Of a DNA stretch of 62,830 bases, positions 1,792-12,351 are shown piece by piece. The notes beneath the pieces are model-generated. The model had not been told where the DNA came from and did no database searches. It saw only the letters and a list, made by a program, of their open reading frames with translations. Numbering within the stretch: the stretch's first letter is position 1; each line of letters begins with the position of its first letter. This stretch comes from an uncultured Verrucomicrobiota bacterium (lineage in GTDB: Bacteria > Verrucomicrobiota > Verrucomicrobiia > Opitutales > Seribacteraceae). The DNA lies in assembly GCA_902615835.1 (NCBI GenBank), contig CACMQL010000007.1, forward strand, positions 1 to 62,830, in the 5' to 3' direction. Position numbers and translations under genes: made by a program.

Positions 1792-3639
1792 ATGAAATCC
1801 CGCCCATGCTTCTCTCTTCTTTGTTTTTTGGTTGGCCTGCTCGCTTCGGCCAAGAAACCCAATGTTCTGCTGATCGTTTGTGATGACCTGAATGATTATG
1901 TCGAAACTCTGGGTGGTCATCCCCAAACCAAGACCCCCCATATCCGTAAATTAATGGAAAGTGGGGTGTCCTTTACCCAGGCACATTGCAATATTCCGAT
2001 CTGCAACCCATCCCGGGCAAGCTTTGCCACCGGTATTTATCCCCATACATCCCAGCAATTCGGTTTCGAGGACTGGGATAAAAACGAAATTTTGCAAAAC
2101 TCACGGACCATGATGGCTCACTTCTCATTGCATGGCTATCATACCTTGGGAACGGGTAAAGTGATGCATAATCGGGATCAGCAAGAGTGGGATGAATATG
2201 GTCATCCCTCCGACTACGGTCCGTTCCTCCATGATGGAAAAGATAAAATCCCCAATTTAAGTGTGCCATCTCCCTTCCGGGATGATTTCGGTATCATTGA
2301 CGGGAATTTTGGACCACTGGAAAATGTTACGGATAAAAAATCATCCAATACCGGAAAAAACTACAGCTGGGTTACTGGTGGATGGAGAAAGCAAAGAGCT
2401 ATGAAATACATTTCGGATGATGACCGTGATCCAACTGGAGATGAACTCAACGCCCAATGGGCGGTGCAAAGGCTTCGGGAGCTTGCTCAATCAAAAAAGG
2501 AAAAACCATTTTTTATGGGTGTCGGTTTTGTTCGTCCGCACACGCCCTTGATTGTGCCACAAAAATACTTTGATCTTTTCCCCCTTGAATCAATAAAACT
2601 GCCTAAAATTCTCAAGGGAGACGCAAACGACACATTCAAACACACCGTTTCCTCCAAGGAAGACGACCGTAGTGGAGACCGTGGGACCAAGATGTATGAC
2701 AGCCTGGTCGCATCGTATGGGGGAGATCGTGAACTGGCTCTGAAAAAATTTGTGCAGGCTTATTTGGCATCAGTCGCTTCGGTCGATGACCTTGTGGGCG
2801 ATATCCTTGAGGAACTTAAGCAAACCGGCTTGGATAAAAATACCATAGTGATCTTCACCAGTGATCATGGTTGGGGAAATGGCGAAAAAGACTATGTGTA
2901 TAAAAATTCCCTGTGGCAGGAAAGTACACGAGTACCTCTTATCATCCGAGCACCGGGTGTTTCAGTTACGAGCAAGCAATGTGACCAACCGGTCTCCCTC
3001 GTGGATCTATACCCCACCCTCCTGGATCTATGTGAATTGCCCATAAACACGATGAAAAACGATAAAGGTCGTCCACTTGATGGCTTTTCGATGAAACCCT
3101 TTCTTCAAGATCCTGAAAAAGGACAATGGGATGGTCCCGACTATGCGATTACTGCTCTTTACAAGTGGGCCCAGTATTATGACCCTGCTTTTCAAAACTA
3201 TTCCCTCCGTTACAAGGACTGGCGTTATATTCGCTATGAGAATGGAAAGGAAGAGCTTTATCACACATCCAAAGATGACCACGAATGGAACAACCTGGCT
3301 CAGCATTCAAAATTTGAAAAGCAATTAAGCGGATTTCGTAAGCAACTTTTATCCATCGTCCCAAAAAGCATCCCTGAAAAACCAAAGAGCAATGAGTATT
3401 GGAAGGATCAATATTTTAAGAAAAACCCATCGGCTGATTCGAATGGAAATGGAAGCCTTTCCTGGGCCGAACTCACAGCCCATAGGAAAATGTCTGAAGA
3501 GGAAAAAAAAGCCCTGCAAAACGAGCATTGGAAAACTTCCTATTTTCAAAAGAATCCGAACGCGGACACCAATCAGGACGGAAAACTTACCTGGCCTGAA
3601 TTTCATGCCCATAAGCAGAGTGCCACACCCAAGAGATAG
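1792..3639 (+). CDS. Secreted sulfatase (iduronate-2-sulfatase-like) with C-terminal EF-hand pair
   Basis: The protein has 615 residues and an N-terminal signal peptide (about residues 1-20). The metal site begins at NVLLIVCDDLNDYV, and the formylglycine motif is C71-N-P-S-R75, so it should be matured by a formylglycine-generating enzyme and hydrolyse sulfate esters in the periplasm or outside. The overall pattern (FFMGVGFVRPHTPLIVP, SDHGWGNGEKDYVYKNSLWQEST) is that of the iduronate-2-sulfatase-like S1 group. After the sulfatase fold come two calcium-loop motifs starting at D549 (DSNGNGSLSWAE) and D592 (DTNQDGKLTWPE), each preceded by a similar W-K-x-x-YF-x-KNP segment, which suggests an internal duplication. 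The substrate cannot be read from sequence. It opens the sulfatase cluster. Confidence 0.93.
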   Translation: MKSRPCFSLLCFLVGLLASAKKPNVLLIVCDDLNDYVETLGGHPQTKTPHIRKLMESGVSFTQAHCNIPICNPSRASFATGIYPHTSQQFGFEDWDKNEILQNSRTMMAHFSLHGYHTLGTGKVMHNRDQQEWDEYGHPSDYGPFLHDGKDKIPNLSVPSPFRDDFGIIDGNFGPLENVTDKKSSNTGKNYSWVTGGWRKQRAMKYISDDDRDPTGDELNAQWAVQRLRELAQSKKEKPFFMGVGFVRPHTPLIVPQKYFDLFPLESIKLPKILKGDANDTFKHTVSSKEDDRSGDRGTKMYDSLVASYGGDRELALKKFVQAYLASVASVDDLVGDILEELKQTGLDKNTIVIFTSDHGWGNGEKDYVYKNSLWQESTRVPLIIRAPGVSVTSKQCDQPVSLVDLYPTLLDLCELPINTMKNDKGRPLDGFSMKPFLQDPEKGQWDGPDYAITALYKWAQYYDPAFQNYSLRYKDWRYIRYENGKEELYHTSKDDHEWNNLAQHSKFEKQLSGFRKQLLSIVPKSIPEKPKSNEYWKDQYFKKNPSADSNGNGSLSWAELTAHRKMSEEEKKALQNEHWKTSYFQKNPNADTNQDGKLTWPEFHAHKQSATPKR

Positions 3640-3683: not shown

Positions 3684-3992
3684 ATGAATCGATTCGTCTT
3701 TCCATCCCTGCTGCTTTCCATTGGAATCTTCCTTTCCTCCTTTTCCTATGCCGAGGAGGAAGCGACCAAGCTTCAAACCACCGGCGTTTTCATCAAAAAT
3801 GACAAAGGCCACTTGGTCTTCACTGATGATGCGGACAAGAAGAAATATTTTGGATTCAATAAGGGCGTGAAGGAAAAAGTTGGCGATTTGATTGATCAGA
3901 AAGTCAAGCTCCACGCCAAGGTTAAAAGAAAAGAAGGGGCTAAGTTCACCTCAATCAACTATGTCGTTTCCGTAAAACCAGTCAAAAAGTAG
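3684..3992 (+). CDS. Small secreted protein, possible OB-fold, unknown function
   Basis: This 102-residue protein starts with a clear signal peptide (MNRFVFPSLLLSIGIFLSSFSYA, cleavage after about residue 23). The mature part is rich in lysine and alternates short beta-like stretches (TTGVFIKNDKGHLVFTDD, DLIDQKVKLHAKVKRKEG, FTSINYVVSVKPVKK). The pattern of the last third, a volume of K-V-x-L/V-x-A/G-x-V followed by a basic turn, resembles small periplasmic OB-fold proteins. That resemblance is an inference only. The gene lies 44 bases after one sulfatase and 59 bases before the next on the same strand, so it may be co-expressed with them. Confidence 0.75.
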   Translation: MNRFVFPSLLLSIGIFLSSFSYAEEEATKLQTTGVFIKNDKGHLVFTDDADKKKYFGFNKGVKEKVGDLIDQKVKLHAKVKRKEGAKFTSINYVVSVKPVKK

Positions 3993-4051: not shown

Positions 4052-7000
4052 ATGCAATTCTCCGGATCTTGTCCTAAGTTTATCGGGTTTGTCCCTTTTC
4101 TTCTGGCACTGGGCTCAAGCCTTGTTTGGGGAGAACCTCTGCGGTCCGCTCCCCCAAATGTTCTGGTTTTCCTGATGGATGACATGGGCATTGGGGACTG
4201 CAAGGTCTACAACTCCGAATGCAAGGTCAAACTGCCCAACTTGGAAAAGCTCGCCGAAAATGGGATGGTTTTCAGTGATGCCCATGCTCCGGCAGCGGTG
4301 TGCGCCCCTACCCGATACAGCATCCTCACCGGAAACTATCCCTGGCGGGGAAGGAATGAGAACGGCACCTGGCTCTTTCACATGTCATCTCAAATCCTGC
4401 CGGGGCAACGAACCCTTGGCCATTTGATGAGGCAAGCTGGTTACCACACCGCTTTCCTAGGCAAAGTTCATCTGGGAGGGACGGTCTACTCAAAATCAAC
4501 CGGCCAAGCCAAGCGAAACTTCAAGGACGGCTTCCGGGACTTTGATTTTTCCAGAAAAATCGAGGATACTCCGGCCTCATTAGGGTTCGATTACGCCTAC
4601 GAGTTGCCTCAGGGAATTCAGGGCTCTCCTTATCTCGCCTTTGAGGACGGGAAATTGGTCGGTAACGAATACGAACTGAGGGAATGGAAAGCGGGAACCT
4701 ATGGAAACTCGGTGATCGAGGCAGACGGCTTCGGATCTCCCGATTGGGATTCATCCATGGCCGGGCCCATTCTTACGGAAAAGGCTTTGAACTTTATCCG
4801 CCGGCATGTCTCCCAAAACCAAAGTTCGGCCATTCGGAAGCCCTTCTTCATGCATTATTGCAGCCAATCCTGTCATGTCCCCCACACCCCACCGCACACG
4901 CTGGCGGGTAAAAAAGTTAAGAGGAGCGCACCCGATGCTCACCTTGACATGTTGGTTGAAGCGGATGTGACTCTGGGTCTCTTCGTTGAAGAACTGAAAA
5001 GGCAGGGAGAGTTGGAAAATACCCTAATTCTTTTCACCAGCGACAATGGCGGATTGGCCCGCGGACCCGTCGGTCTGCAAAATGGAGATCATAATTCCAA
5101 TGCAGGCCTTCGGGGAAGCAAGGCTCAGATTTATGAGGGCGGACACCGGGTTCCCTTCATCGCATCCTGGGGAAACGGAGCCAAGAATTCTCCGATCCAG
5201 GCTGGTTCCCAAAGCAAAGCATTGATCGGGTTGCAGGATTTGTTCGCCACCTTTGCCGAACTCACCACTCAATCGATGAAGCCTGGAGATGGTTTGGACA
5301 GCCAATCCTTCCTGGGAATCTTATTGGGCGAGAACAAATCAACCAAAAGATCCGAACTTCTGGTGCAGGCCAACAATGGGGAATACTTTAACCAACAATC
5401 CAAAAAAGCCCTGCGGGAGAACCAGTGGAAACTGATTGCCACCAAAGAACTCAAACCGGTCGAATTGTATGACTTGGCAATCGATCCGGCCGAAAGCAGA
5501 AACCGAATTGAGGAAAGTGCCCAATCCCAGCGGGTTCAACGGATGAGCTCCAACCTCCAATCGGTCTTTCGCTCGAAGCGTTCGACCAAACCATACCGTT
5601 TGAACGGAAAAGACGATTGGGAGACAGAACCCAAAGTCCATGTCCATGAATTGAAAGCTCCCCGAGCCAACTTAATTTGCAGGGCACAAGGCATTGAGGG
5701 TGGAGAAGCCCAAAATTGGAACCAGCGATGGAAGATCAGTGGAACCAGCCCGGTGCGATTGACCTTCGTACCCCGCGAACGCCAAAGCTGGGATCTTTCC
5801 GGTTTCAAACTTGTGGGTATTCCCCTTCAAAACTGGGACTCGGGTATCACCACCGTGGAAGGCAGGCTGAACAACGGAAACCTGACCAGTTGGTCCCACC
5901 ATGCCGTTGGTTTTTCAGTGGCTCCAAGCTGGGAAAAAACCACTCTGGGTTTCCCCTTTCCCATGGTTGAGGAGCGTTTCCAGGGACCCCAACTTTTCCG
6001 GGATCAATTGGCCAAGCCCAATGGACATCGCTTGCATTGGAGGCGGTTCTACCCCGAAGACATCCGGGAAATCACTCTTGAATTTCGATCCTCCTCCGGA
6101 AAAGTGAATCTTTTGGTGGGTTCTCCCTTTGCAGCGTGGCCCAAGACGGAGGCTCTGGAGGATTCATTGATGGAATTCCCTTTCCTTGATGAGTTGGGAC
6201 AAGTGCGAGCAGTGGACTGGCCGGGTAAGACGCCCGACCTGCAGGCAGGTCGCAAGGCCTTGACCGAGGCATTCGCCCTGGCTAGCGAACAAGCCAGAAA
6301 AAAGAGATTGAGCAAATACGGAGGCTGGATCGACGGTCCCAAGCTCGATGCAACCGGACGGTTCCGCACCGAAAAAGTTGACGGAAAATGGTGGTTGGTC
6401 GATCCGGAGGGGCATCTCTTTTTTTCCGTGGGAGCCTGCATGACTGGTTGGCAGGCGGAAACTTCCGCAGTAAGCAAACGGTCTAATAATGATTTCTTTG
6501 CCTACCTTCCCTCCGAGAAGGATTACCTGAGCTGGACCGCAATGCGAAAACTTAGGGACCGGAAATTCGTAAATTTCGCGGGCATGAACTACCAAAGGTA
6601 TTTTGGTAACGAATGGTCTGGCATCGTAAGCAAAGGGATCCACGACCGGATGCGGGCCTGGGGATTGAATACTCTGGGTTGCTGGTCCGATGACAAGTTG
6701 CAGAAAGAGGGAAAAACCCCCTACTGCCTGATTTCTTCGATCTGGTGGCAAGCCAACGGACACCGGAAATTCCCCTCCCCCTTCCGTCAGGATTTTCAAT
6801 CAGACCTGGAAAAGAACCTGAGAAAATTTTCCTGGGCGAAAAACGATCCCTATTGCCTGGGTATCTTTATGGGAAACGAATTGGAATGGCCCGACCGAAT
6901 CGGACCGACCATCCAAAGCCTCCCTTCGGATCACCCCACCAGGAAATGGGCGATTAAGGAATTGAAGAGGCTTGGCAAGCCCACTTCCCCGGCCAAGCTT

Positions 7001-7573
7001 GCCGACTTGGAAACGCTCTATCTTCCTTTTGTTCAAAGTTTCTTCTCCAAATGCAAACAGGCAGTCGAAAGGGAACTTCCCGGCACCTTGTACCTGGGAT
7101 GCCGGACCCATCGGGGCCCAAATGTTCTGGGACGCGGAGCTCTGGGTTCAGTCGATGTGTTTTCAGTGAATGTTTATGACTCGAGGGTGCGCTCTTGGCA
7201 AGTGCCCAAGGATGCAGACATTCCGATTATATCGAGTGAGTTTCATTTTGGAGCGGTGGACCGCGGAGTACCCAGCCCGGGACTTTCGGGTTCCTGGGAC
7301 CAACGGCAACGGGCCCTGTCTTTCGCTCACTATCTATCCTCCGCCCTGGCTGACCCTCGTTTCGTGGGCGTGCACTGGTTTCAGTGGATTGACCAGTCCG
7401 CGGCCGGCAGGCAGGACCGGGAGAACCATCAATGCGGATTCATTGACGTTGCCGGACGGGCTTACCCTGAATTCACCGAGGTGGTCACGCAGTCGACCTC
7501 CAGGATGTACGCTGCCCGCAAGAAACCAAGCCTCTCCACCGAAGGAATTTTGGCCGACATATTAAGAAAGTGA
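4052..7573 (+). CDS. Bifunctional secreted sulfatase / agarase-like glycoside hydrolase fusion
   Basis: This single 1173-residue frame starts with a signal peptide (about residues 1-27). Residues about 35-500 are a sulfatase: the metal site is LVFLMDDMGIGD and the formylglycine motif is C84-A-P-T-R88. A middle region (about 510-750) has beta-rich, carbohydrate-binding-like character (LTFVPRERQSWDLSGFKLV). From about residue 770 to the end is a TIM-barrel hydrolase beginning GKWWLVDPEGHLFFSVGA. It has a candidate acid/base E943 in MGNELEW and a candidate nucleophile E1063 in IISSEFHFGA, and it ends in GVHWFQWIDQ and GFIDVAGRAYPE. That tail resembles GH50-type beta-agarases, but the exact family is uncertain. 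The protein would both desulfate and cleave a glycan. The next sulfatase starts only seven bases downstream, suggesting one operon. Confidence 0.88.
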   Translation: MQFSGSCPKFIGFVPFLLALGSSLVWGEPLRSAPPNVLVFLMDDMGIGDCKVYNSECKVKLPNLEKLAENGMVFSDAHAPAAVCAPTRYSILTGNYPWRGRNENGTWLFHMSSQILPGQRTLGHLMRQAGYHTAFLGKVHLGGTVYSKSTGQAKRNFKDGFRDFDFSRKIEDTPASLGFDYAYELPQGIQGSPYLAFEDGKLVGNEYELREWKAGTYGNSVIEADGFGSPDWDSSMAGPILTEKALNFIRRHVSQNQSSAIRKPFFMHYCSQSCHVPHTPPHTLAGKKVKRSAPDAHLDMLVEADVTLGLFVEELKRQGELENTLILFTSDNGGLARGPVGLQNGDHNSNAGLRGSKAQIYEGGHRVPFIASWGNGAKNSPIQAGSQSKALIGLQDLFATFAELTTQSMKPGDGLDSQSFLGILLGENKSTKRSELLVQANNGEYFNQQSKKALRENQWKLIATKELKPVELYDLAIDPAESRNRIEESAQSQRVQRMSSNLQSVFRSKRSTKPYRLNGKDDWETEPKVHVHELKAPRANLICRAQGIEGGEAQNWNQRWKISGTSPVRLTFVPRERQSWDLSGFKLVGIPLQNWDSGITTVEGRLNNGNLTSWSHHAVGFSVAPSWEKTTLGFPFPMVEERFQGPQLFRDQLAKPNGHRLHWRRFYPEDIREITLEFRSSSGKVNLLVGSPFAAWPKTEALEDSLMEFPFLDELGQVRAVDWPGKTPDLQAGRKALTEAFALASEQARKKRLSKYGGWIDGPKLDATGRFRTEKVDGKWWLVDPEGHLFFSVGACMTGWQAETSAVSKRSNNDFFAYLPSEKDYLSWTAMRKLRDRKFVNFAGMNYQRYFGNEWSGIVSKGIHDRMRAWGLNTLGCWSDDKLQKEGKTPYCLISSIWWQANGHRKFPSPFRQDFQSDLEKNLRKFSWAKNDPYCLGIFMGNELEWPDRIGPTIQSLPSDHPTRKWAIKELKRLGKPTSPAKLADLETLYLPFVQSFFSKCKQAVERELPGTLYLGCRTHRGPNVLGRGALGSVDVFSVNVYDSRVRSWQVPKDADIPIISSEFHFGAVDRGVPSPGLSGSWDQRQRALSFAHYLSSALADPRFVGVHWFQWIDQSAAGRQDRENHQCGFIDVAGRAYPEFTEVVTQSTSRMYAARKKPSLSTEGILADILRK

Positions 7574-7580
7574 CTCAAAG

Positions 7581-9122
7581 ATGAAGCATTCCATCAAAAC
7601 CATTCTCACCGGACTCGCTCTCCTAGGTTCACTGAAGGCGGAAGAACGGCCGAATATTCTTTTTCTCTTCAGCGATGATCATGCCTTACGCACCATCGGA
7701 GCCTACCCCGGTTCGATCAACCAAACTCCAAACCTTGACCGGATCGCAAAAGAAGGGGCTCTTTTCACTCATTCCTTCAACGTCAATTCCATCTGCTGTC
7801 CCAGTCGGGCCGCCATTCTCAGCGGCAAGCACAGCCAGGCCAATGGCGTCATCGGAAACTCTTCCAAGTGGAACGGCAGCCAGTGGGTGTATCCCCGTGA
7901 ACTTGGAAAAGCCGGCTACGAAACCGGGTTGATCGGTAAGTGGCACCTAAAGGGCAACCCGACGAACGAATTCCAATCTTGGGAAATTCTTTCCGGCAAA
8001 GGCGGACAGGGTTCCTATTTCAACCCCACTTTTCTTTCCCCTAATGGAGAAACCAAAGTAAACGGGCACTCGACCCAAATCATCACCGACAAAGCCCTCC
8101 ATTGGCTGAAAAAAAGAAACCGCCAAAAGCCCTTCCTGCTCTGTGCCCAATACAAGGTTCCGCACATTCACCGCCTTCCACTGCCTGAACATATGAGTGG
8201 GTATGATGATTACGAATTCCCGGTTCCAGAGACTTTCTTTGACGATTTCTCCACCCGTTCGCCTTTCGTTTCAAAAACCTGGATGGCCTTGAAGGGTATG
8301 AAAGGGCATGTGCTTAACATCGCCCCCCTGGAGTCCGAACTCAAGGCTGACCCCAAGCTCAGGCCACCCTTTTTGCAGGAAATGACGAGAACACAAAGAA
8401 ATGCTTGGCATCAAGCTTACGACCCCCGAAACACGCGTTACCGAGAACTCGAAAAGCAGGGTAAACTTCAGGGGGATGAGCGAAACCTTTATGTATACCA
8501 ACGGTTCATCAAGGATTATGTTCGGTGCATTGACGGCTTGGATGCCCAGATCGGTCGTATTCTTCACTTTTTGGAAAAGGAGGATTTAGCGGAAAACACC
8601 CTGTTGGTTTACAGTTCGGACCAGGGCTTTTTCACCGGGGAACACGGATGGGCTGAGAAACGATGGATGTATGAGGAAAGTTTCCAGTCTCCCCTTCTGA
8701 TGCGCTGGCCCGGGGTCATTAAACCCGGAAGCGTGATCGGGGACTTGGTTCAGAACATCGATTTGGCTCCCACTTTTCTTCAAGCCGCAGGCCTAGATGT
8801 TCCAAGCACCCTACACGGTTTGGCTCTGCAACCGCTTTTTTCCGAGTCCGGGCCAAAGGAATGGAGAGAGGAAGTGCTTTACCAATACTTTGACGGGGGA
8901 ACTCTGCAAAAACCGGGACCCTACAACATGCCCAGGCACGAAGGCATCCGAAACCGTAGATACAAACTCATTTCCTTTTATGAATACGACGCTTGGGAAT
9001 TTTACGACCTGAGAAATGACCCAAACGAACTCAAAAACTTAATCGAAGACCCCTTAATGAAATCTCGAATTCAATGGATGAAGCAAAGATTGCTAAAACT
9101 GAAATCCAAATTCTCTCTTTAA
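7581..9122 (+). CDS. Secreted sulfatase
   Basis: The protein has 513 residues and a short signal peptide (about residues 1-20). The metal-binding start is NILFLFSDDHALRTIGAYP, and the maturation motif is C72-C-P-S-R76, with C72 the predicted formylglycine. Other family signatures are TGLIGKWHL, YKVPHIHR and SSDQGFFTGEHGWAEKRWMYEES, the last typical of arylsulfatase A / heparan-N-sulfatase-like S1 members. The large insertion around residues 205-290 varies among subfamilies. It begins seven bases after the sulfatase-hydrolase fusion and probably shares its transcript. The substrate is not determinable here, but the agarase-like neighbour points to sulfated red-algal galactans. Confidence 0.93.
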   Translation: MKHSIKTILTGLALLGSLKAEERPNILFLFSDDHALRTIGAYPGSINQTPNLDRIAKEGALFTHSFNVNSICCPSRAAILSGKHSQANGVIGNSSKWNGSQWVYPRELGKAGYETGLIGKWHLKGNPTNEFQSWEILSGKGGQGSYFNPTFLSPNGETKVNGHSTQIITDKALHWLKKRNRQKPFLLCAQYKVPHIHRLPLPEHMSGYDDYEFPVPETFFDDFSTRSPFVSKTWMALKGMKGHVLNIAPLESELKADPKLRPPFLQEMTRTQRNAWHQAYDPRNTRYRELEKQGKLQGDERNLYVYQRFIKDYVRCIDGLDAQIGRILHFLEKEDLAENTLLVYSSDQGFFTGEHGWAEKRWMYEESFQSPLLMRWPGVIKPGSVIGDLVQNIDLAPTFLQAAGLDVPSTLHGLALQPLFSESGPKEWREEVLYQYFDGGTLQKPGPYNMPRHEGIRNRRYKLISFYEYDAWEFYDLRNDPNELKNLIEDPLMKSRIQWMKQRLLKLKSKFSL

Positions 9123-9173
9123 TCACTGATCTATATTTGTTTCATGGGTGAAAAATTAAGACCAATTGACGGC

Positions 9174-10163
9174 TTATTTTAATCTAAAATTAGCCCAAAA
9201 TCTATCAGGAGAGGTCAGGTCTCGGCCGGAGTCGTCAAATACAGTGCCTATTTCCCTCAATCCGTAAAGACTCCGGACTACCTTCATACCACGCTTAATT
9301 CGGGAGGGCGAAAACACTAAGCGGGTCAGATTGACCCCTGCCAAGGGAGTCAAATCCTCGATCATAGTTTCACCGATGTGCAAGCGTTGCAGAACCGGCA
9401 AATTGCGAACAAACGCAACATCTTCGACCAAAGTACGATGGAGGGTCAGGCTGATCAGGGGAAGCCCGGCTAGTCCTGAAACATCAGAAACCGGAGATTC
9501 AGACAACCAGAGCTGTTTCAAATTGGAGGAACGAATTGGAGAAACTTCGGTTATTCGGGTGCGGACTGCATATAAGTTTTCCAATGGTTGCCCCTCTAAG
9601 CCTTTTAAAGAATGAATGGGGGAATTATTAAGCCGGAGTTCAACGAGCTTGGCATCATTCAAATCCCGCAAACTTTCAACTCTGGTATTTTCCAAAAAGA
9701 GGTTTCGTAAAGGCATGCCTTTCAGGTGACGAAGTTCCCGTACGGGATTTCCGCTTAAATCCAATCCATGTAACCGTAGACCCCTTAAGGGGGACAAATC
9801 ACGAAGTTTACAATTCGACAACTCGGCAGCCACGATCACTCCACTATCCTCATAAAACTTACCCTGACCCTGATAATCGGGGTTTGCCCGAGCGAGGATA
9901 TTTTGGATTCTGGCAATACTTGGAGAAGGCATTTCTATTTCTTCGTTTTTCAAAGGGGATGAGAGATGCTTATCAGTTGAAGCAAGCCGGGAATTAAAAT
10001 TTTCCTGCGAGGAATTTAACTCATCCACTTTCCCTGCAGGTTTGGCCAAGGAGGAATTATTTTCGGTTCTTTCTGAACCCTGATGAACCTCACAACTTCC
10101 GAAAACAATACAAAGGGAAGCAAAGATGAATAAAAGAGAAATTGGCTGATGAAGTTGTGACAT
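9174..10163 (-). CDS. Leucine-rich-repeat lipoprotein
   Basis: The 329-residue product begins with a hydrophobic leader ending FGS-C24, a plausible lipobox. A low-complexity Ser/Asn/Lys linker runs to about residue 85. From about residue 115 to 300 there are at least eight short leucine-rich repeats of roughly 21-22 residues with the pattern L-x-x-L-x-L-x-x-x-x-[IV]-x-[DES]-[LV] (for example LRGLRLHGLDLSGNPVREL). The repeats resemble those on the cytochrome c protein encoded at 57727-58677. LRR proteins usually bind other proteins; no partner can be named. It points towards the third sulfatase (convergent) and away from the symporter (divergent), and is less GC-rich than either. Confidence 0.8.
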   Translation of the reverse strand: MSQLHQPISLLFIFASLCIVFGSCEVHQGSERTENNSSLAKPAGKVDELNSSQENFNSRLASTDKHLSSPLKNEEIEMPSPSIARIQNILARANPDYQGQGKFYEDSGVIVAAELSNCKLRDLSPLRGLRLHGLDLSGNPVRELRHLKGMPLRNLFLENTRVESLRDLNDAKLVELRLNNSPIHSLKGLEGQPLENLYAVRTRITEVSPIRSSNLKQLWLSESPVSDVSGLAGLPLISLTLHRTLVEDVAFVRNLPVLQRLHIGETMIEDLTPLAGVNLTRLVFSPSRIKRGMKVVRSLYGLREIGTVFDDSGRDLTSPDRFWANFRLK

Positions 10164-10181
10164 AAAATCAGACCTACTAGT

Positions 10182-10203
10182 CAGTTCAACAATTGTCGAA
10201 CTG
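10182..10203. promoter_or_regulatory. Near-perfect palindrome, candidate operator
   Basis: The arms CAGTTC (10182-10187) and GAACTG (10198-10203) flank the core AACAATTGTC. The 22 bases are palindromic except for one mismatched pair (positions 7 and 16), and one more matching pair flanks each end. The site lies in the 97-base divergent promoter region of the LRR lipoprotein and the symporter. Its form is that expected for a dimeric repressor such as LacI or GntR types. A second inverted repeat, AACCGC/GCGGTT at 10204-10226, directly abuts it. No regulator gene is adjacent. Confidence 0.55.
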
Positions 10204-10260
10204 AACCGCGGTGTGAGTTAGCGGTTTACTCGTATCAGATCGGTCATTAACTTCCGAACC

Positions 10261-12351
10261 ATGAACTCTCTGCTCTCCACCCCTGACCTGGTCATTTTCT
10301 TCGGTTCTCTCATCGCGGTTATGGCCATGGGCCTGTGGGTGGGAAGAAAGGAGGACAGTTCGGAAGATTACTTCCTCGCCGGAAGAAGCACCCGCTGGTG
10401 GGGGGTTGCCGGTTCTATTTTCGGTTCCAATGTTTCGGCCAATCATATTGTCGGGATGATGGGAGTGGGCTTCGCGGTAGGTTTCGCCCAGAGCCACTTT
10501 GAAATCACCGCCATTGCCGGTTTGTTGATGCTTTGCTACTTTTTTCTCCCGGTTTACCGCAAGCTCAATGTATACACCCTGAGCGACTACCTGAGCCGAA
10601 GATACGACGACCGAAGCCGGGTGAGTTATGCCCTGATCATGGTGATCATCATGGTGGTGATCCAAATGGTTCCGGGCTTTTACATCGGTTCGCGCTCGAT
10701 CAATATCCTGCTGCAGGGTGACACGGGTCGCAAGGCGGTGGCGGAGGCTATGGTTACGGATGAAGGAACACTTTCGGAAATTAAGATTCTCCATGGCGGC
10801 GAAGGATATGGCTCTGTTCCCCAGGTTCTGATCAATAACCAGGAAGTGGAATTTCTTCAAGCCAGCCTGATCGATGATCAGGTGGGCGAAGTCGAAGTGA
10901 CCGCTCCCGTACCGGAAGCTTACCTAAACGCCCCCCTGGGCATCAGTTTTTCCGGAGGTAATCTTGAAAACCCGGACATCTCTCCTGGTGACGTGGATCC
11001 CTTTAATTACCGACTGGGCATCCTGATCATGGCTCTGGTTACCGGAGCTTATGTGATCATCGGGGGTTTGAAAGCAGTCATCATCACCGATGTCATTCAA
11101 TCCGTGCTCTTGCTGCTGGCCGGGCTATTGGTTGCCTTCATCACATTTTCACAGCCCGAAATCGGGGGCTGGGCCAGTTTGATGGCCCGAGATCTGGGGG
11201 CCGAGGGGGTGGAACGCTTTCATCTGTACAATGCATCCAACCACCCTGCCCTGCCCTGGACCGGTGTGCTCAGCGGATTGATGATCCTGCATTTTTACTA
11301 CTGGGGGACCAACCAGTTCATTGTGCAACGGGCCCTATCCGCGACCACCGATAAGGAAGCCAAGATGGGAATCATCGCAGCCGGGTTCTTCAAGCTGCTG
11401 ATTCCCTTCTTTTCGATTGGGACCGGAATCGCAGCCTACTATCTCTTTAAAGACCGCAATCTTGAAGTCGCTCAGGATGCAGTGTTTATTAAATTGCTGA
11501 CCGAATTGATCTCTCCCCTGGGTTTTGGCCTGGTTGGACTGATTGCTGCCGGGATGATCGGGGCGATTCTTTCGAGCCTCGACTCGATGATGAACTCCGC
11601 CGCCACCATCATGACCTTTGATCTCTATAAAAAGTACCTCAACTCGGAGGCGGATGACCGTAAACTGATTTCAGTGGGGCGTATTTGGATTGTCACCTTT
11701 ATCGTATTGGCCGGATTCATCACCATCTTCACTATGGATCCGAATTCAAAGGACAGTTTCTTTTTGCATGTGGCCAAGCATCAGGGGAACCTGATTGCGG
11801 GCGTGGTCATCGCCTTCTTTTTGGGCATGTGCTGGAAACGGGCCACCGCGGCCGGCGGGGTTGCCGCAATCCTCGCCGGGGTCCTGTTCAGTTACTCCAT
11901 TCCCGTGCTTTACGCCAACCTGGCGGAAGGGAACCAGGCTTTTATCGTTTTATTCGGAGAGAAGCTCAATTTTATGCACGGTGCCTTTGTCTCGGCTCTT
12001 CTTAGTGCCTTGGTGCACATCGTGATCAGCCTGAAGACTCAGCCCGATGAGGAAAAAGGCAAACTCACCTGGATTGGCCTGCAAATCTTCAGTCCCAAAG
12101 AACTATCGGTTTTTCTCAAAACCCTACTTTTTTGCCTCGCGATCTATGCCACCCTTGCAACTTTGGTGGTCCTGGAAACCATTTCTCCGACAATTGCCGC
12201 ATGGATTGGTGCCCTTTGGACCTTTGGCTGCTTCTGCCTGTCCGCTGCACAAAAAGCGAAATACTCGGGTATCGTTATCTATCGGGAAGATCGTTTTTGG
12301 GCAGGAGGCTTGGCGGGTTGTGCCATCTTCATGCTCTTTTACTTTTTCTGA
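10261..12351 (+). CDS. Sodium/solute symporter (SSS family) with inserted extracytoplasmic domain
   Basis: The 696-residue membrane protein belongs to the SSS (SGLT-like) family. Its typical features are LVIFFGSLIAVMAMGLWVGR followed by EDYFLAGRSTRWWGVAGS, SNVSANHIVGMMG, YWGTNQFIVQRALSA and SSLDSMMNSAATIMTFDLY. Related proteins import sugars or uronates with Na+. Between about residues 152 and 245 there is an insertion of some 90 soluble residues that ordinary SSS transporters lack. It holds ILHGGEGYGSVPQVLINN, a short beta motif also common in secreted repeat proteins of this phylum. The gene follows the sulfatases and is the natural uptake route for their products. Its last bases overlap the convergent oxidoreductase gene by 13. 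Confidence 0.9.
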   Translation: MNSLLSTPDLVIFFGSLIAVMAMGLWVGRKEDSSEDYFLAGRSTRWWGVAGSIFGSNVSANHIVGMMGVGFAVGFAQSHFEITAIAGLLMLCYFFLPVYRKLNVYTLSDYLSRRYDDRSRVSYALIMVIIMVVIQMVPGFYIGSRSINILLQGDTGRKAVAEAMVTDEGTLSEIKILHGGEGYGSVPQVLINNQEVEFLQASLIDDQVGEVEVTAPVPEAYLNAPLGISFSGGNLENPDISPGDVDPFNYRLGILIMALVTGAYVIIGGLKAVIITDVIQSVLLLLAGLLVAFITFSQPEIGGWASLMARDLGAEGVERFHLYNASNHPALPWTGVLSGLMILHFYYWGTNQFIVQRALSATTDKEAKMGIIAAGFFKLLIPFFSIGTGIAAYYLFKDRNLEVAQDAVFIKLLTELISPLGFGLVGLIAAGMIGAILSSLDSMMNSAATIMTFDLYKKYLNSEADDRKLISVGRIWIVTFIVLAGFITIFTMDPNSKDSFFLHVAKHQGNLIAGVVIAFFLGMCWKRATAAGGVAAILAGVLFSYSIPVLYANLAEGNQAFIVLFGEKLNFMHGAFVSALLSALVHIVISLKTQPDEEKGKLTWIGLQIFSPKELSVFLKTLLFCLAIYATLATLVVLETISPTIAAWIGALWTFGCFCLSAAQKAKYSGIVIYREDRFWAGGLAGCAIFMLFYFF

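What the first reader, a model, noticed from the sequence alone, without database searches (positions are those of the whole stretch)
4052..7573. One protein joins a sulfatase and an agarase-like glycoside hydrolase
A single uninterrupted 1173-residue frame carries a complete sulfatase (formylglycine motif C84-A-P-T-R88) and a complete TIM-barrel hydrolase with candidate catalytic residues E943 and E1063, plus a beta-rich middle region. Sulfatases and glycan hydrolases are normally separate proteins in the same cluster. A fused enzyme that removes sulfate and cuts the chain would be an unusual design for degrading sulfated red-algal galactans. The hydrolase tail (GVHWFQWIDQ) resembles GH50 agarases, but the spacing of the two glutamates (120 residues) is shorter than I would expect for that family, so it may be a new subfamily.
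Basis: partly seen in the sequence, partly recalled or inferred. Interest (0 to 1): 0.75.

Follow-up and report, generated by a model that had tools for sequence, protein, structure and literature searches.

The report
Sulfatase fused to agarase-family enzyme
A probably marine bacterium encodes one protein that joins an enzyme for removing sulfate from sugars to an enzyme of the agar-cutting GH50 family; the fusion is real and shared by two bacterial phyla, but fusions of this general kind were already known and its substrate is untested.

Summary
Window 4052-7573 is one open 1173-aa frame: S1 sulfatase (about 32-510) plus a complete GH50 module (sandwich about 535-700, barrel about 740-1157). 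It is not an assembly join: 21 of 80 related public loci carry the same fusion in one frame, in Verrucomicrobiota and Planctomycetota, and their GH50 halves form one clade. E943 and E1063 align with the Aga50D catalytic pair, and six of six named GH50 active-site residues are kept. The short 120-residue spacing is specific to the Verrucomicrobiota copies; Planctomycetota copies have 145. The parts also occur as separate neighbouring genes in an order-mate, and two Planctomycetota copies carry a second sulfatase behind the GH50 (S-GH50-S). Sulfatase-GH fusions are in print (S1_7-GH10, S1_15-GH29, S1_25-GH78), so this is a new combination of a known design. The substrate is open: the sulfatase lacks the S1_15 Asp/Arg pair, a free-standing relative sits in a rhamnose-type cluster, and GH50 is not purely agarolytic. 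Most likely mechanism: exo-desulfation, then exo-hydrolysis at the same chain end; inferred, not shown.

The parts
4052..7573 (+). Fusion gene, 1173 aa: sulfatase + GH50
   Evidence: single open frame; same fusion in 21 of 80 fetched loci
4052..4141 (+). Putative N-terminal signal peptide (residues 1-30)
   Evidence: hydrophobic stretch read from the translation, helix 13-23 in the model at low confidence; no signal-peptide predictor was run
4145..5581 (+). S1 sulfatase domain (residues about 32-510), C84-A-P-T-R88 formylglycine motif
   Evidence: Pfam PF00884 and PF16347; PDB S1_15 best hits; Foldseek
4301..4315 (+). CAPTR motif, residues 84-88, Cys expected to become formylglycine
   Evidence: C, A, P and R identical in every fused row of A1 that covers them; position 87 is T, or S in L054 and L055
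5654..6151 (+). Beta-sandwich of the GH50 module (residues about 535-700), CBM-like
   Evidence: model secondary structure; GH50 structures align over 665-753 columns; Aga50D and AgWH50C have an N-terminal CBM domain (PMC11079163, passages)
6269..7522 (+). GH50 (beta/alpha)8 barrel (residues about 740-1157)
   Evidence: phmmer to 4bq2, 5z6p, 6xj9; model and Foldseek
6875..6880 (+). N942-E943 (Aga50D N533, E534 acid/base)
   Evidence: identical in 31 of 31 GH50 rows of A1; alignment
7238..7240 (+). E1063 (Aga50D E695 nucleophile)
   Evidence: identical in 31 of 31 GH50 rows of A1
1792..3639 (+). Upstream separate sulfatase S_up (615 aa) with C-terminal EF-hand-like stretch (below Pfam's own cut-off)
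   Evidence: Pfam; an S_up-like gene lies upstream of the fusion in 17 of the 18 fused loci with enough upstream sequence, both phyla (not in L055)
7581..9122 (+). Downstream separate sulfatase S_dn (513 aa), starting 8 bases after the fusion's stop codon
   Evidence: Pfam; 73-88% identical copies directly behind the fusion in 7 of 10 Verrucomicrobiota loci with downstream sequence (not L041, L044, L045)
3684..3992 (+). Small reading frame (about 102 aa) between S_up and the fusion
   Evidence: read; matches in 7 of 9 Verrucomicrobiota loci with upstream sequence (not L041, L044)
10261..12351 (+). Sodium:solute symporter, possibly an uptake partner (inference)
   Evidence: Pfam SSF; matched in 5 Verrucomicrobiota loci

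Best explanation
A secreted or periplasmic two-enzyme protein for a sulfated beta-linked (probably galacto-configured) polysaccharide. The S1 sulfatase domain removes a sulfate ester from the residue at the non-reducing chain end; the attached GH50 exo-type retaining hydrolase (acid/base E943, nucleophile E1063) then releases the desulfated terminal unit, and the cycle repeats. It works together with further sulfatases encoded next to it that remove sulfates at other positions. The fusion most likely arose once, by joining two genes of one small cluster, and passed between Verrucomicrobiota and Planctomycetota; two Planctomycetota copies have taken in another sulfatase of the same cluster. Shown here: one frame, both folds (model and fold search), conserved catalytic residues, purifying selection, one clade for the GH50 halves of the fusions, unfused and triple-fused versions. 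Inferred: secretion, catalytic activity, exo mode, order of steps, galactan substrate, the direction of the series and the transfer between phyla.
For: Single frame with fused homologues in 21 of 80 loci, plus L046 cut off by its contig end. The 23 rows of the fused clade (21 loci, L046, window) form one group with SH-aLRT support 100 in a quick tree of 84 GH50 rows; no tree was built for the sulfatase half, but fused sulfatase halves are 58-89% identical to the window's in the genome-contig loci while the best free-standing one found in 273 genomes of the order is 44%. Sulfatase residues D43, D44, C84, R88, K138, H140, D331, N332 identical in every fused row of A1 that covers them. Six of six named GH50 active-site residues (Aga50D N533, E534, E695, F742, R752, E757 = N942, E943, E1063, F1110, R1120, E1124) identical in 31 of 31 GH50 rows. 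dN/dS 0.086-0.095 for the sulfatase and 0.066-0.105 for the barrel in three pairwise comparisons. L160 has a GH50, an MFS transporter, an S_up-like sulfatase (49%), a second sulfatase (62% to the domain fused in L054) and a homologue of the fusion's sulfatase (39-41%) as five consecutive same-strand genes. FGE family PF03781 in 27 of 27 same-genus genomes. Precedents: in P36 S1_25-GH78 of the ulvan pathway both domains act in consecutive steps at the non-reducing end (PMC8511951, passages); GH50 Ph1609, Ph1624 and Ph1636 are exo-beta-agarases (PMC5943477, passages); characterised S1_15 enzymes are exo-acting.
Against: The sulfatase lacks the Asp/Arg pair that binds galactose O4 in S1_15 (Q190/G191 here), so 6-O-sulfogalactose specificity cannot be carried over. 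The loops at 187-217 and 222-229 have pLDDT under 50. A free-standing 35%-identical sulfatase on a Catenovulum plasmid lies among rhamnose-catabolism genes and a GH88, and a 30%-identical one in Bacteroides beside GH115- and GH76-type genes. Few agar or porphyran markers in the genus: PF18206 in 1 of 27, GH16 in 15 of 27 (9 of the 15 genomes with the fusion). GH50 also holds a beta-galactosidase and beta-1,3-glucanases. The fusion was not found in 12 of 27 same-genus genomes, four of them over 90% complete. No activity data.
Confidence: 0.6

Rival explanations
1. Fusion for co-secretion and fixed stoichiometry only: both domains are active on the same polysaccharide but not in sequence on the same chain end (for example an endo-acting sulfatase or an independent branch).
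For: A related sulfatase and GH50 are separate proteins in L160, and other sulfatases next to the fusion stay separate, so physical linkage is not required; no interdomain contact was tested.
Against: P36 S1_25-GH78 precedent for consecutive action; the closest characterised sulfatases are exo-acting pocket enzymes.
Confidence: 0.25
2. The substrate is not a red-algal galactan but another sulfated glycan (phytoplankton or particle polysaccharide, or a rhamnose- or glucan-containing one); the GH50 domain has drifted in specificity.
For: GH50 includes beta-1,3-glucanases and a beta-galactosidase; missing S1_15 recognition pair; Catenovulum neighbourhood; few porphyran or agar markers. Several isolate codes in the record titles (IN, NP, TMED, AG, AH) are, from recall and not from a call, ocean-survey MAGs and single cells rather than seaweed isolates.
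Against: All six named GH50 active-site residues of agarases are kept; strongest matches are beta-agarases; the GH50 of the unfused cluster L160 matches agarase 5z6p at E 3e-78.
Confidence: 0.35
3. Frameshift, chimeric assembly or pseudogene rather than a functional fusion.
For: The genome is a fragmented draft, 61% complete in 91 contigs.
Against: Same fusion in 21 of 80 loci from two phyla, dN/dS near 0.1 in both halves, catalytic residues kept.
Confidence: 0.01

Closest known systems
P36 (S1_25 sulfatase - GH78 rhamnosidase) of Formosa agariphila, ulvan pathway (PMC8511951, passages read)
   Same: One polypeptide with an S1 sulfatase and a glycoside hydrolase; a two-enzyme design for a sulfated marine polysaccharide
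   Different: GH78 instead of GH50, other sulfatase subfamily, ulvan, a Flavobacterium; both domains were assayed there (separately)
S1_7-GH10, S1_7-GH32 and S1_15-GH29 fusions in Kiritimatiellales strains F1/F21 (Pontiella), with a fucosidase/sulfatase fusion also in Rhodopirellula rubra (PMC6388578, passages read)
   Same: Sulfatase-GH fusions in PVC bacteria, one of them assigned to S1_15
   Different: Other hydrolase families; the words GH50 and agarase do not occur in that text; predicted, not characterised
Multi-domain sulfatases of Porphyra-associated Planctomycetes (PMC4807772, section 14 read, passages)
   Same: Reports 34 and 21 multi-domain sulfatase genes in two genomes, most often with glycoside hydrolase and hypothetical domains, and a double-sulfatase fusion
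   Different: Hydrolase families of the fusions are not named in that section; since the same genomes also hold GH50 genes, a sulfatase-GH50 fusion among the unnamed ones is not excluded
Exo-beta-agarase Aga50D and other GH50 structures (4bq2, 5z6p, 6xj9)
   Same: Fold, CBM-like sandwich plus barrel, catalytic Glu pair, four further active-site residues
   Different: No sulfatase; 22-24% identity in the structural alignment; Glu-Glu spacing 161 against 120
S1_15 6-O-sulfatases BT3333 and S1_15A/B of P. distincta U2A
   Same: Among the closest solved sulfatases by sequence and fold
   Different: Asp/Arg O4-recognition pair replaced by Gln/Gly; no hydrolase attached

Membership tests
Glycoside hydrolase family 50 | CBM-like sandwich followed by (beta/alpha)8 barrel | tested here: met
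   model and Foldseek
Glycoside hydrolase family 50 | Catalytic Glu pair aligned with Aga50D E534 and E695 | tested here: met
   E943, E1063
Glycoside hydrolase family 50 | Other shared active-site residues (Aga50D N533, F742, R752, E757) | tested here: met
   N942, F1110, R1120, E1124; residues named in PMC11079163, mapped on the alignment, counted
Glycoside hydrolase family 50 | CAZy/dbCAN GH50 model score; placement in proposed GH50_1, GH50_2 or GH50_3 | not testable with these tools
   dbCAN not available; characterised reference sequences were not in the tree
Glycoside hydrolase family 50 | Beta-agarase activity | not testable with these tools
   needs an assay
Sulfatase family S1 | Sulfatase fold and C-x-P-S/T-R formylglycine motif | tested here: met
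Sulfatase family S1 | Conserved sulfate-site and metal residues (D43, D44, R88, K138, H140, D331, N332) | tested here: met
   identical in all fused rows covering them; the role of each residue is recalled family knowledge
Sulfatase subfamily S1_15 | Closest solved relatives by sequence and structure are S1_15 | tested here: met
   24-28% identity in the structural alignments
Sulfatase subfamily S1_15 | Asp/Arg pair binding O4 (BT3333 D173, R174) | tested here: not met
   the DR of 6s20 (two higher in chain count, my inference that it is D173/R174) aligns with Q190 and G191; PQGIQG in all 8 fused rows displayed
Sulfatase subfamily S1_15 | His binding O3 (BT3333 H225) | tested here: inconclusive
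   region not reliably aligned and of low model confidence
Sulfatase subfamily S1_15 | SulfAtlas assignment | not testable with these tools
   SulfAtlas not held
Bifunctional sulfatase-GH enzymes (P36 type) | Both enzymes in one polypeptide | tested here: met
   one open frame; the protein itself was not observed
Bifunctional sulfatase-GH enzymes (P36 type) | Consecutive action on one substrate | not testable with these tools
   needs an assay

The most novel reading that the evidence does not exclude
A small polysaccharide-degrading gene cluster is being turned step by step into one multi-enzyme protein: separate GH50 and sulfatases (L160), then sulfatase-GH50 (window clade), then sulfatase-GH50-sulfatase (L054, L055). 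The product is a self-contained desulfate-and-cut machine whose sulfatase and GH50 form new subfamilies matched to each other, acting on a marine sulfated polysaccharide for which no dedicated exo-enzyme is known.
Probability: 0.25. Interest if true: 0.65.

Novelty: new variant of a known kind. Interest (0 to 1): 0.45.

Why it matters
It gives a natural series (separate genes, double fusion, triple fusion) in which to test whether joining a sulfatase to the hydrolase it serves speeds the breakdown of sulfated polysaccharides. Because related partners occur both fused and unfused, the gain from fusion can be measured directly. If the substrate is sulfated, it would also add a GH50 clade that works on sulfated chains, and it points to a sulfatase clade whose specificity cannot be read from S1_15.

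Tried and rejected
Rejected: assembly join or frameshift. Rejected: short Glu-Glu spacing as the mark of a new GH family. Rejected: the middle region as a third separate module; it is best read as the GH50 CBM-like domain. Not adopted: naming the sulfatase S1_15 / 6-O-galactose sulfatase, because the Asp/Arg pair is missing. Agar or porphyran system in the genus: GH16 in 15 of 27 genomes and PF18206 in 1 of 27, inconclusive. Plasmid collection: 3 of 72,556 records match at E 1e-60, the sulfatase half only, no fusion; the Persicobacter record carries no annotation, so its context was not read, and the Bacteroides one lies beside GH115-, GH76- and SusC/D-type genes.

Literature: 10 searches in the held open-access library. 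In the listings and passages seen I found no sulfatase-GH50 fusion described; most listed papers were seen only as title and start of abstract. Of the 5 papers that hold sulfatase, GH50 and fusion, 2 were opened. One search was drowned by unrelated 'fusion' papers and one search found none. Subscription papers and preprints are not held. Papers opened: PMC4807772 (section 14 and passages), PMC12549532 (sections 9, 10 and passages), PMC11079163 (outline with abstract, passages), and by passages only PMC8511951, PMC8857213, PMC10154612, PMC6994673, PMC6388578, PMC10880615, PMC5943477; in PMC9096561 none of the six terms sought occurred.
Full report
Observation. Window 4052-7573 (+) is one open frame of 1173 aa starting with ATG. 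Pfam finds Sulfatase at 35-405 and SGSH_C at 357-504 and nothing in the C-terminal half. Sequence search of the C-terminal 657 aa against PDB chains finds GH50 beta-agarases (4bq2, E 1.2e-49), aligned in three stretches. In that alignment E943 faces the residue that is Gln in entry 4bq4, and E1063 faces the second Glu; PMC11079163 (passages) names these E534 (proton donor) and E695 (nucleophile) in Aga50D and lists N533, F742, R752 and E757 as further shared active-site residues. Their equivalents N942, F1110, R1120 and E1124, with both Glu, are identical in 31 of 31 GH50 rows of alignment A1.

Structure. An AlphaFold2 model from 37 sequences has mean pLDDT 82.9 and pTM 0.78. Foldseek's first 15 PDB matches are GH50 chains over 665-753 alignment columns, and ranks 16-23 are S1_15 sulfatase chains. 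The beta-rich middle region is therefore best read as the CBM-like domain of the GH50 module. Loops 187-217 and 222-229 of the sulfatase are below pLDDT 50, so its substrate pocket cannot be read from the model.

Is it an artefact? No. One scan of the species-genome collection gave 158 confirmed stretches for the C half, of which the best 80 loci were kept. In 21 of 80 the same open frame also holds the sulfatase; L046 is cut off at its contig end. By BLAST the GH50 parts of the 21 fused copies are 47.8-87.8% identical to the window's (65-88% for the Verrucomicrobiota loci, 48-52% for the Planctomycetota ones), and no unfused one listed exceeds 37.3%. In a quick maximum-likelihood tree of 84 GH50 rows the 23 rows of the fused clade (21 loci, L046, window) form one group with support 100: 12 Verrucomicrobiota rows, the window included, and 11 Planctomycetota rows. 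No tree was built for the sulfatase half; its fused copies are 58-89% identical to the window's, and the best free-standing relative found in 273 genomes of the order is 44%. dN/dS is 0.086-0.095 for the sulfatase, 0.103-0.133 for the middle and 0.066-0.105 for the barrel in three pairs.

Spacing. The distance between the two Glu is 120 in all 12 Verrucomicrobiota fused rows of A1, 145 in all 8 Planctomycetota fused rows and 143-154 in the 11 unfused rows, against 161 in Aga50D. The short distance is most simply a 25-residue deletion in one lineage.

Where the fusion came from. A genome of the same order but another family (G217, locus L160) has five consecutive genes on one strand, about 30 to 100 bases apart: a GH50 (5z6p, E 3e-78), an MFS sugar transporter, a sulfatase 49% identical to the window's upstream sulfatase and 54% to one next to the Planctomycetota fusion in L048, a second sulfatase 62% identical to another neighbour in L048, and a 39-41% homologue of the fusion's own sulfatase. 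Of 43 genomes of that family, 4 have this GH50 at E 1e-100 and 4 have this sulfatase at E 1e-150; both occur in three (G217, G240, G285), 4.8 kb apart on one contig in G217 and G285, on different contigs in G240; the sulfatase matches outside G217 are reported with one TAA inside. In two Planctomycetota loci, L054 and L055, the frame runs on into a second sulfatase (Pfam at 1229-1549 in L054; L055 by 83% identity), 62-65% identical to the separate gene found two genes upstream of the fusion in seven other Planctomycetota loci. So related parts exist unfused, double-fused and triple-fused; the direction of the series is an inference.

Neighbourhood. In the window the fusion lies between two further sulfatases, 1792-3639 and 7581-9122, the latter starting 8 bases after the fusion's stop; a sodium:solute symporter follows at 10261-12351. 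An S_up-like gene lies upstream in 17 of 18 fused loci with enough upstream sequence, in both phyla; an S_dn-like gene lies directly downstream in 7 of 10 Verrucomicrobiota loci.

Function. GH50 exo-beta-agarases and exo-acting S1_15 sulfatases are the nearest characterised parts, and the ulvan enzyme P36 shows an S1 sulfatase and a GH in one chain acting in consecutive steps at the non-reducing end. I infer the same order here. The substrate is open. BT3333 of S1_15 binds galactose O4 with D173/R174; the aligned residues here are Q190/G191, and the motif PQGIQG is kept in all eight fused rows displayed, while the free-standing relatives displayed mostly have G(I/V)Q. A free-standing 35%-identical relative on a Catenovulum plasmid sits among rhamnose-catabolism genes and a GH88. 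GH16 is in 15 of 27 same-genus genomes (9 of the 15 with the fusion) and the porphyranase marker PF18206 in 1 of 27 (without the fusion), neither in the window's own 61%-complete genome. GH50 also holds a beta-galactosidase and beta-1,3-glucanases. An FGE-family protein, needed to mature the sulfatase, is in 27 of 27 same-genus genomes; the Pfam family is broad.

Novelty. Sulfatase-GH fusions are in print: 34 and 21 multi-domain sulfatases in two Planctomycetes from Porphyra, most often with GH and hypothetical domains (PMC4807772, section 14); S1_7-GH10, S1_7-GH32 and S1_15-GH29 in PVC bacteria (PMC6388578, passages); S1_25-GH78 (PMC8511951, passages). In ten library searches and the passages read I found no S1-GH50 or S1-GH50-S1 fusion described, but the Porphyra paper does not name its GH partners and its genomes hold GH50 genes, and subscription papers and preprints are not held. 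Verdict: real, conserved, a new combination within a known kind, substrate unknown.

Noticed in passing
L054:535-5514 and L055:4080-9056: Triple fusion sulfatase-GH50-sulfatase (1660 aa in L054) in two Planctomycetota loci; the third domain is a separate gene in seven other Planctomycetota loci.
   Followed up: partly
L160:2448-10812 (G217): Five consecutive same-strand genes hold an unfused GH50, a sugar transporter and three sulfatases homologous to the fused system.
   Followed up: partly
L119 (G199): One frame holds two GH50 modules in tandem, next to a separate sulfatase gene on the same strand.
   Followed up: no
L161:5812-8334 (-): 841-aa protein: sulfatase of the same clade plus about 335 aa without a Pfam match; open frames of 844-857 aa hold the matching sulfatase in other genomes of that family.
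   Followed up: partly
L048, L049, L050, L056 C-terminal ends of the fusion: Planctomycetota copies end in an extra stretch with an EF-hand-like DADTN(G/R)DG motif; the window's S_up also has an EF-hand-like stretch at its C-terminus, below Pfam's cut-off.
   Followed up: no
window 4052-12351: GC3 of the fusion (0.595), S_dn (0.566) and the symporter (0.637) is above that of the other genes measured nearby (0.39-0.47), S_up included (0.459); only the 102-aa frame (0.563) is similar. Transfer or expression-linked codon use are both possible.
   Followed up: partly
window 3684-3992: Small reading frame with a signal-like start, between S_up and the fusion; matches in 7 of 9 Verrucomicrobiota loci with upstream sequence.
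   Followed up: no
window 9174-10163 (-): Leucine-rich-repeat protein on the opposite strand; matched near the fusion in 7 Verrucomicrobiota loci (L039, L041, L044, L045, L047, L059, L099).
   Followed up: no
L074:7782-11627, L114:9157-13659: GH50-like domains in Verrucomicrobia and Kiritimatiellae MAGs joined to FAD oxidoreductase (L074) or PA14 (L114) domains.
   Followed up: no
G017:C2:221456-224041: A porphyranase-type domain (PF18206) and an FGE-sulfatase-family domain (PF03781) are both reported in a 1625-aa open frame on the same strand, probably the same frame.
   Followed up: no
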